Source: a bacterium (GTDB lineage Bacteria; Cyanobacteriota; Vampirovibrionia; Gastranaerophilales; Gastranaerophilaceae). Taken from it: a stretch of DNA of 37,491 bases. The notes under the pieces were generated by a model. That model searched no databases. It was not told the origin of the DNA and was given only the letters and a program-made list of their open reading frames with translations. The stretch is taken from contig JAGBXP010000043.1 in assembly GCA_017629215.1 (NCBI GenBank), positions 1 through 37,491 on the forward strand, written 5' to 3'. The translations under genes and the position numbers were made by a program. Shown piece by piece: positions 30,512-33,191 of this stretch. Each line of letters begins with the position of its first letter. Within the stretch, counting starts at the first letter, position 1.

Positions 30512-31543
30512 ATGCTAGATAATATCAAGTATTTAATGAGTTTAAAAACTGTAGATAAGAATATTCTTGAAGGGAATTTTGAGCTTGCTTTAAAAAAACT
30601 GAATTTTTTAATAAAAGAGGATTATAAACCTTCGATAACGTATTTGAAACGTGGTAAATTGTGTAAAAAAATATTAATGTATGATTACGCATATTCTGAT
30701 TTTACTTATATTATTGGACATTGTGCGCAAAAAAAAGAAGCATTTTATGAAAGACTTTTTTTAAACTATGAAATCGCAAATTACTATGAAGCAATAACTG
30801 ATGCTAATACTGTTTTAAGTTGGGATGAGGATAATTTTGATGTAAAAAGAATTAAACTATTATCTCTTATTTTTTCATCACAAGATAGTATAGCTATTGA
30901 TTTTATAATGGAAATATTTGATTTTCATAAATATAAAGCTATTCATTTTTTGTTTAATGAAGTAGCTTTAACTCTAGCAAAAGATGAATATAATCGTTCA
31001 ATGCGTTTGTTAGAAATAATTGATTTGATAGATAAAGATAATCCGATTAAATTACTAAAAGAAGCTAATATTTATGGACTTATTGGAAATAAAGAAAAAC
31101 AAAAAGAAATAATTTCTAAAATTGAGTCTATTTTTCCTAAATATTTTGTTTCACATTTTCGCTTCTCAGATATGTATCAAGATAAAGATTTATTAGAGAT
31201 TAGTTTTTTATTAGAACTTGAAGTTTTTGATAAACAAGGCTTGTTTTTATACCCTTTTAGAGTTCTTGAGGGGTACAAAAATTATCTAGAAGGTCATATT
31301 ATTGATTCAAAAGAATGTTTTGAGAAAGCTATCACGATAAATCCTGCAAAACCTGAAGGATACGTTTTGTTAGCTCAAACTTTGCAATTAATGTCTGGTT
31401 ATGACAGTCCTGACTATCGAATTCAAGCTGAAGAAAGTTATAAAAAAGCTATGGAAATTTATCAAAAAGAAAATTTGTTAGAAAAAGTAGAAGATATGAA
31501 GCGCCAGTTAAAACACTTAAATTCTTCTTTAAATCTTAAATAG
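30512..31543 (+). CDS. TPR-repeat protein (343 aa)
   Basis: The soluble helical solenoid shows TPR-like pairs: ILEGNFELALKKLNFLIKED near the N-terminus, YYEAITDANTVLSWD at about residues 91-105, and ECFEKAITINPAKPEGYVLL plus AEESYKKAMEIYQKENLLEK near the C-terminus. The central repeats are degenerate. No catalytic domain or signal peptide is present. GAGGG precedes the ATG. It follows dnaA by 74 nt, possibly on the same transcript, and overlaps the convergent nadE by 8 nt. It probably acts as a protein-interaction scaffold; the partner is unknown. Confidence 0.85.
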   Translation: MLDNIKYLMSLKTVDKNILEGNFELALKKLNFLIKEDYKPSITYLKRGKLCKKILMYDYAYSDFTYIIGHCAQKKEAFYERLFLNYEIANYYEAITDANTVLSWDEDNFDVKRIKLLSLIFSSQDSIAIDFIMEIFDFHKYKAIHFLFNEVALTLAKDEYNRSMRLLEIIDLIDKDNPIKLLKEANIYGLIGNKEKQKEIISKIESIFPKYFVSHFRFSDMYQDKDLLEISFLLELEVFDKQGLFLYPFRVLEGYKNYLEGHIIDSKECFEKAITINPAKPEGYVLLAQTLQLMSGYDSPDYRIQAEESYKKAMEIYQKENLLEKVEDMKRQLKHLNSSLNLK

Positions 31544-33191
31544 TATTTATATAATTAACTTTTGAACTAGTAATTGGTTGGTAGTAATCAACCTTATTGA
31601 TAGAATAAGAATCTACTATTGGTGAAGGTGGCATTATTGAGCCTTTAAATAATGCAAATGACATTCTGCGATAAAATTTATTTAGCCATTCAATTTTTTG
31701 GTCTTTAGAAACATTTTTTTTCTTTTCATATATAAATTGTGTATTTATTAAGTCTTTATAGCTTTCTTGCTTGTTTTCAATTCTCCAAATGATTTCATCT
31801 AAAAATTCATAAGGCATCAGAGCGTCCTCTGCACAAAGAGATTTCCCTGTATTTGGATCAATCGCAAGCTCTGCTCCAGGTTTTTTTAAAATAATAGATT
31901 CAGGAATAACATTTTTATCTTTTCGATTAGCATTCATCCAGCGAGCAAGTGCAAAAAGCTTTGTTTTAGTAATATCAGCTATAGGAGCAAAACCTCCTGA
32001 CATATCTCCGTTTATAGTTGCATACCCCATATACAGCTCAGATTTATCTGATGTAGCTATTGAAATGCAAGACTCAAACTCATTCGCTATTCCAAATAAA
32101 AACATTGCTCTAGAACGAGCCTGAATATTATCTGGTGTAAAAGATTGTTTGTATCGGCAATTCCAATTTTTTTCAATATCTGAAAATAAATTATTAAGAC
32201 AAGACTCTGTTGTTGTATACATTTCTTTTATTGATGCTTCTGCAAATCTTATACCGAGGTTTTCTGCTAGTTTTTGTGCATCAGATTTGCTTTCATCGCT
32301 TGTAAGCTTAGAAGGCATTGAAATTCCAAAAACATTTTCTTTACCTAACGCATCAGCTAACAATACAGCGCAGACTGTTGAATCTAAGCCCCCAGATAAT
32401 CCTAAGACAGCTTTTTTTAATCTACATTTAAAAAAATAGTCTTTTATAGATTGAACTATTGATTTATAGACTCGTTCTAAATCCCAATCATAATCAAGGG
32501 AAAATTCCGAAGGTGCTTCCTGTGGTTCTATAGAATAAATTTTTCCAATTTTGCGAAATGGATTTACTACTAATAATTGTTCTTCAAAGTCTATAGCTCT
32601 AGCAAAAATTTTTCCGTTTTCATCACAAGCGATACTTTGTCCTGCATAGGACCAACCATCAATTGAACCGACTTGGTTTATTTCCAATATAGGACGTTTA
32701 AATTTAATAGAAAGCTCTTTTATATATTTTTCTCGTGAATATTGAGAACCCATTCTTGAAATGATTGCAGAAGGCTTTATAAAAAATTCGACCCCATCGT
32801 GAAATTCTTTCGATGTTATATATTCACAGTCTTTTATTATTTTATCAATTCTACCATTTCGTAATATTGCAAATGCGTGTTCTTTATTTTTATTTACAAA
32901 ACTTATTAATGCAGATGTCTTTTTGCAATTTATAGCGATTTTCTCTAAGCATTTCATAGATTCTTCAAGAATAAATGGATAACGATTAATGAAATCATAC
33001 ATTTCAAATCCTAAAATAGTATTTTTAGGAAATGCTATTATGTCGAGTTCTAGCAATTCTGCCTGCTTAATATACTCAATGATTTTCTTACTATTATGTT
33101 CTAGGTCTCCTGCAATTAAATTTATTTGTGCTAGTCCAATAAAACCACCTAACTTTATATATTCTTTTAATTCAGAGTCTAAAAAATTCAT
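31536..33191 (-). CDS. nadE: NAD+ synthetase with degenerate glutaminase domain
   Basis: The C-terminal synthase (from about residue 235) is intact, with the PP-loop LGLSGGLDSTVCAVLLADAL at 263-282, FTPDNIQARSRAMFLFGIAN and YMGYATINGDMSGGFAP. It amidates nicotinate adenine dinucleotide using ATP. The N-terminal ~215 residues are a nitrilase-type glutaminase remnant (GLAQINLIAGDL). The catalytic Glu of FPE is Lys (FPK, K56), the KxxLPNYxVFDE lysine loop is unrecognisable, and the stretch carrying the nucleophile Cys (CEDIW) is missing. About 45 residues appear deleted between FFIKP and SREKYIKELS. Ammonia-dependent activity is inferred. GGAGAA lies 11 nt before the ATG. Its 3' end overlaps the convergent TPR gene by 8 nt. 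Confidence 0.92.
   Translation of the reverse strand: MNFLDSELKEYIKLGGFIGLAQINLIAGDLEHNSKKIIEYIKQAELLELDIIAFPKNTILGFEMYDFINRYPFILEESMKCLEKIAINCKKTSALISFVNKNKEHAFAILRNGRIDKIIKDCEYITSKEFHDGVEFFIKPSAIISRMGSQYSREKYIKELSIKFKRPILEINQVGSIDGWSYAGQSIACDENGKIFARAIDFEEQLLVVNPFRKIGKIYSIEPQEAPSEFSLDYDWDLERVYKSIVQSIKDYFFKCRLKKAVLGLSGGLDSTVCAVLLADALGKENVFGISMPSKLTSDESKSDAQKLAENLGIRFAEASIKEMYTTTESCLNNLFSDIEKNWNCRYKQSFTPDNIQARSRAMFLFGIANEFESCISIATSDKSELYMGYATINGDMSGGFAPIADITKTKLFALARWMNANRKDKNVIPESIILKKPGAELAIDPNTGKSLCAEDALMPYEFLDEIIWRIENKQESYKDLINTQFIYEKKKNVSKDQKIEWLNKFYRRMSFALFKGSIMPPSPIVDSYSINKVDYYQPITSSKVNYINTI

What the first reader, a model, noticed from the sequence alone, without database searches (positions are those of the whole stretch)
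32520..33191. NAD synthetase carrying a dead, internally deleted glutaminase domain
The synthase half is intact, but the N-terminal nitrilase domain has FPK for FPE (K56), no recognisable catalytic Lys loop, and lacks the segment with the nucleophile Cys; about 45 residues are missing between FFIKP and SREKYIKE. The enzyme should depend on free ammonia, with the remnant kept for structure or oligomerisation.
Basis: partly seen in the sequence, partly recalled or inferred. Interest (0 to 1): 0.65.

Follow-up and report, generated by a model that had tools for sequence, protein, structure and literature searches.

The report
NAD synthetase with dead glutaminase half
A gut bacterium related to cyanobacteria makes its essential cofactor NAD with an enzyme whose glutamine-splitting half has lost its active site but not its fold, so it should need free ammonia; many relatives have the same kind of loss, apparently in parallel.

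Summary
The finding holds. The 551-aa NadE (31536-33191, minus strand) is the only NAD synthetase found in its genome (Candidatus Gastranaerophilales). Against intact congeners the glutaminase triad Glu/Lys/Cys is Lys56/Asp121/absent, and a net 69 residues, including the nucleophile strand, are deleted at residues 132-135. The synthetase half is intact. An AlphaFold2 model keeps a nitrilase core in the usual two-domain arrangement. Cys-less NadE recurs across the order: 61 of 163 distinct scored sequences (sample enriched for short ones), in many genera. In two genera dead and intact forms occupy the same locus. An rpoB tree asks for about 13 changes; single placements and synteny favour parallel in-situ decay, although a joint gene tree unites most dead forms (probably long-branch attraction). 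In related dead enzymes the relict domain still evolves under purifying selection (dN/dS mostly 0.11-0.34). Best reading: an ammonia-dependent synthetase with a structural pseudo-glutaminase, like CPS I in logic. No enzyme activity could be tested here.

The parts
31536..33191 (-). nadE: 551-aa two-domain NAD synthetase with inactive glutaminase domain
32556..33152 (-). relict nitrilase-fold (glutaminase) domain, residues 14-212
   Evidence: Pfam CN_hydrolase 30.5 bits; AF2 model with pLDDT mostly above 90; Z about 21 to nitrilase-superfamily amidases
33024..33026 (-). codon 56: Lys in place of the catalytic Glu of FPE
32829..32831 (-). codon 121: Asp in place of the catalytic Lys
32790..32795 (-). 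deletion point, residues 133-134 in place of 71 residues of the nearest intact relative, nucleophile Cys included
31551..32504 (-). intact synthetase domain, residues 230-547
   Evidence: PF02540 182 bits; 79% identical to intact relatives
32379..32396 (-). PP-loop SGGLDS, residues 266-271
   Evidence: invariant in alignment A1
31539..31643 (-). C-terminal extension, residues 517-551, retained; likely the loop that contacts the glutaminase domain in two-domain enzymes
   Evidence: conserved positions in A1; element described in PMC3376133; the correspondence is inference

Best explanation
This is a glutamine-dependent (two-domain) NAD synthetase that has become ammonia-dependent by decay of its own glutaminase site in place. 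The synthetase half adenylates deamido-NAD with ATP and amidates it with free ammonia. The N-terminal nitrilase-fold domain no longer hydrolyses glutamine and is kept as a scaffold for the domain interface and the quaternary structure. Shown: triad lost, nucleophile strand deleted, synthetase residues and predicted relict fold kept, relict still under purifying selection in relatives, same locus as intact orthologues in sister species. Inferred: ammonia as donor, the scaffold role, and that ammonia-rich guts made the loss tolerable. Losses in the order are most likely many and parallel, with intact copies regained by horizontal transfer in some genomes.
For: Triad K/D/absent against E/K/C in relatives of the same genus. 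Only NadE found in the genome. Synthetase residues invariant across dead and intact forms. AF2 model pLDDT 85.9 with nitrilase core, Z 32.1 / rmsd 2.4 over 455 residues to two-domain 3n05 and Z 28.1 to the NH3-dependent H. pylori enzyme over the synthetase half. dN/dS of the relict domain in close dead pairs mostly 0.11-0.34, against 0.01-0.07 in most intact pairs; synthetase half 0.04-0.10 in most dead pairs. Same locus dead or intact: nadE-TPR-dnaA in the window's genus, nadE-f2-f1 in genus g23. The synthetase half of G000 is closer to intact G015 (79%) than to dead G033 (73.5%). About 13 changes on the rpoB tree (12-14 over bootstraps). Placed one at a time, G000, G033, G018 and G025 fall within intact sequences of their own genus. 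Two-domain NadE can use free ammonia in vitro (PMC3376133; PMC6946656).
Against: No activity data. No Amt-type ammonium transporter in this genome, and Amt presence does not track the dead state (7 of 55 genomes). A joint tree of synthetase domains groups 28 of 30 dead sequences with 98/93 support, and about half of the single placements fall at the base rather than within their genus, so the number of losses is uncertain.
Confidence: 0.85

Rival explanations
1. A separate nitrilase-family amidase supplies ammonia in trans, so that the enzyme is still effectively glutamine-fed, as in two-subunit NAD synthetases.
For: The genome has one other CN_hydrolase (C51:125970-126707) in which E, K and C motifs can be read.
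Against: It is not next to nadE and resembles deaminated-glutathione amidases most (122 bits, below that model's cut-off), with only 72 bits to the NAD synthase model. It is present in most intact genomes too, and not found in dead G227 and G059. The relict domain still occupies the place where a G-subunit would dock.
Confidence: 0.06
2. All close-subfamily dead NadE descend from one ancient inactive allele or paralogue that was sorted or exchanged among species, not from parallel decay.
For: Joint tree: 28 of 30 dead sequences form one clade, 98/93. Cys-to-Gly in the same place in several genera. Nine genomes hold a dead and an intact copy.
Against: Dead and intact genes share one locus in each of two genera. 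The dead rows have long branches and the clade breaks up when they are placed singly. G000's synthetase half is nearest to intact congeners. The rpoB tree scatters the dead state. In several two-copy genomes of g23 the intact copy looks like the newcomer, in a separate glutamate-synthase cluster shared almost unchanged between genera.
Confidence: 0.2
3. The relict domain has a new role, such as sensing glutamine or another ligand to regulate the synthetase, rather than a purely structural one.
For: Purifying selection persists on the relict in dead relatives; at least 209 residues precede the SGG motif in all 61 dead sequences scored.
Against: The glutamine-site residues and loops are lost differently in each lineage and constraint is relaxed severalfold, which suits a scaffold better than a shared ligand site.
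Confidence: 0.1
4. The enzyme has changed its main substrate, for example to an NMN synthetase.
For: Francisella NMN synthetase is a structural neighbour (3fiu, Z 26.6).
Against: It is the only NadE found, 79% identical to intact NadE in the synthetase half, and ordinary NAD synthetases score higher.
Confidence: 0.03

Closest known systems
Two-domain glutamine-dependent NAD synthetase (type F; PDB 3n05, 5kha, 4f4h, 3ilv, 3dla, 6ofb)
   Same: Fold, domain order, synthetase site, C-terminal extension; intact orthologues sit at the same locus in sister species
   Different: Glu, Lys and Cys of the glutaminase lost; nucleophile strand deleted
Single-domain NH3-dependent NadE (H. pylori 1xng, B. 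subtilis 1nsy, E. coli 1wxi)
   Same: Expected to use free ammonia only; synthetase fold (Z 28 to 1xng)
   Different: Still carries a roughly 200-residue relict nitrilase domain; arose from a two-domain enzyme
Carbamoyl-phosphate synthetase I (ammonia-dependent CPS with an inactive glutaminase domain)
   Same: Same logic: a glutamine amidotransferase that turned ammonia-dependent while keeping its glutaminase domain (CPS II to III to I transition, PMC6022934; the inactive domain of CPS I is from general knowledge)
   Different: Unrelated class I glutaminase; other pathway; no similar in-frame loss of the nucleophile strand known to me

Membership tests
Glutamine-dependent (two-domain) NAD synthetase | NAD_synthase domain with PP-loop SGGxDS | tested here: met
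   PF02540 182 bits, SGGLDS at 266-271
Glutamine-dependent (two-domain) NAD synthetase | N-terminal nitrilase-fold domain | tested here: met
   Reduced: Pfam 30.5 bits, AF2 model, Z about 21 to amidases over about 195 residues
Glutamine-dependent (two-domain) NAD synthetase | Catalytic Glu-Lys-Cys triad | tested here: not met
   Lys56 / Asp121 / absent
Glutamine-dependent (two-domain) NAD synthetase | NAD formation from glutamine | not testable with these tools
   needs enzyme assay
Single-domain NH3-dependent NadE | No glutaminase domain in the chain | tested here: not met
   relict domain of about 200 residues present
Single-domain NH3-dependent NadE | Activity with ammonium only | not testable with these tools
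   needs enzyme assay
Two-subunit NAD synthetase (types C and R) | Separate G-subunit closely homologous to the NadE glutaminase domain | tested here: inconclusive
   One other CN_hydrolase in the genome, nearer to deaminated-glutathione amidases and not found in some dead genomes; function untested

The most novel reading that the evidence does not exclude
In one bacterial order, two-domain NAD synthetases have lost glutamine use in place a dozen times or more, keeping the dead domain as a selected scaffold, and some species have regained an intact enzyme by horizontal transfer. This would be a running natural experiment in the switch between glutamine and ammonia, and it adds a route that is missing from a published scenario in which the forms are distributed by transfer and gene loss only.
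Probability: 0.65. Interest if true: 0.65.

Novelty: new variant of a known kind. Interest (0 to 1): 0.55.

Why it matters
The main comparative study (PMC3376133) explains the mosaic of glutamine- and ammonia-using NAD synthetases by transfer and gene loss without further fusion or fission. The Gastranaerophilales show a further route: in-situ decay of the glutaminase site, with graded intermediates (Cys to Gly only; Lys loop lost; strand deleted; about 220 residues left before the PP-loop). That gives matched active and inactive pairs at one locus for measuring what the glutaminase domain contributes to structure and regulation. It also warns against annotating glutamine dependence from domain presence alone.

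Tried and rejected
Assembly artefact: rejected, as sister genomes show the same loss. Second NadE in the genome: none found; the only further PF02540 hit is 28.5 bits over 69 positions. Cys122 as a surviving nucleophile: rejected on alignment and predicted strand order. Compensation by an Amt transporter: no pattern. Glutamine synthetase loss: no pattern, GlnA in 27 of 28 genomes, G000 included. A truly single-domain end form: G308 (293 aa) looked like one but is open at a contig end. First genome-contig scan with the single protein gave nothing. The second structure job (G057, 468 aa) gave only pLDDT 70, so I do not lean on it. Literature searches found no report of this loss in NadE; the library is open-access only.

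Full report
Observation. The ORF at 31536-33191 on the minus strand encodes a 551-aa NAD synthetase. Pfam finds a full NAD_synthase domain (182 bits) and a weak, broken CN_hydrolase match (30.5 bits; an intact relative gives 65). It is the only NAD synthetase found in the genome, which is estimated 97.6% complete. Related named records are Candidatus Gastranaerophilales / Melainabacteria, many from ruminant guts.

Triad. Most congeners have a 660-680-aa enzyme with FPE, VRKS and ICEDCW motifs. In the window protein the Glu is Lys56 and the Lys is Asp121, in a loop that still aligns without gaps (IIKDCEYITSKEFHD / IVRKSLLPTYSEFND). Seventy-one residues including the nucleophile Cys are replaced by two at residues 133-134.

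Structure. An AlphaFold2 model (pLDDT 85.9, pTM 0.89) has a compact N-terminal nitrilase core with the nucleophile strand missing. It superposes on two-domain NadE (3n05 Z 32.1, rmsd 2.4 over 455 residues), on NH3-dependent NadE over the synthetase half (1xng Z 28.1), and on nitrilase-family amidases over residues 8-213 (Z about 21).

How widespread. In the sequences that I collected, 61 of 163 distinct NadE whose triad could be scored are dead and 102 intact; this sample was enriched for short ones and is not a census. In the close subfamily, dead forms occur in genera g1 (the window's), g23, g33, g36, g37, g40, g47 and g49, and in G046 of another family; intact members of g1, g23, g33, g36, g37 and g40 were seen as well. 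A more distant subfamily of 454-505 aa, in fifteen sampled genera, lacks the Cys throughout. Stages range from Cys to Gly alone to deletion of most of the Lys loop and the nucleophile strand.

Origin. In the window's genus dead and intact nadE both sit next to the same TPR gene and dnaA; in g23 several of both kinds precede the same two genes. They are therefore positional orthologues there. A joint tree of synthetase domains puts 28 of 30 dead rows in one clade (98/93), but these rows have long branches. Placed one at a time among intact sequences, G000 and G033 fall with G026/G015, G018 with G013, G025 with G009 and its relatives, and seven g23 sequences among or beside g23; most of the rest drop to the base. 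G000's synthetase half is 79% identical to intact G015 but 73.5% to dead G033. On an rpoB tree of 49 genomes the dead state needs 13 changes (12-14 over 1000 bootstraps; irreversible-loss and Fitch counts agree). I take parallel decay as more likely, at about four to one.

Selection. In close dead pairs, dN/dS of the relict domain is mostly 0.11-0.34, against 0.01-0.07 in most intact pairs; the synthetase half is 0.04-0.10 in most dead pairs (a simple counting method, and many dS values are near saturation). G000 itself has no relative close enough for such a count. No dead sequence scored has fewer than 209 residues before the SGG motif. The domain is relaxed but kept.

Second copies. Nine genomes hold a dead copy and another, intact copy: G245, G214, G132, G106, G085, G161, G365, G280 and G008 (G008's is only a fragment at a contig end; G280's is of a different type). 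In G245, G085, G106 and G365 the intact copy lies beside split glutamate-synthase genes, in most with dapF and dapL; such copies are nearly or fully identical between different genera, so recent transfer is likely, and in G085 and G106 TniB-like genes are nearby. One g23 genome, G260, has only this kind of copy.

Mechanism. Two-domain NAD synthetases also accept free ammonia in vitro (PMC3376133, PMC6946656). With the glutaminase dead and the synthetase under strong selection, free ammonia is the expected donor. This genome has glutamine synthetase but no Amt transporter, so ammonia presumably enters by diffusion or arises from catabolism; that is inference. Nothing here tests activity or oligomeric state.

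Noticed in passing
L093, L094, L095, L097, L099, L100 (G085, G106, G105, G245, G260, G365): Intact nadE beside split glutamate synthase genes, in most also dapF and dapL, with near-identical NadE across genera g21, g23 and g33; identical NadE synthetase regions in G245 and G365. A TniB-like transposition gene lies nearby in L093, and homologous ORFs in L094. Looks like recent horizontal transfer.
   Followed up: partly
L171-L187: A distant NadE subfamily of 454-505 aa in fifteen sampled genera of the same family has no nucleophile Cys in any member; Pfam finds no CN_hydrolase match at all in the G057 protein.
   Followed up: partly
L230-L309 (record titles): Among named records, dead NadE carries a ruminant label more often (16 of 23) than intact NadE (14 of 55), Fisher p 0.0007; counted by hand from titles and not corrected for relatedness.
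   Followed up: partly
window:31536-31543: nadE and the convergent TPR gene (30512-31543) overlap by 8 bases at their 3' ends.
   Followed up: no
G248:C25:19400-20680 and G291:C19:1029-1811: nadE matches with one in-frame TGA and one in-frame TAG stop; possible pseudogenes or assembly errors.
   Followed up: no
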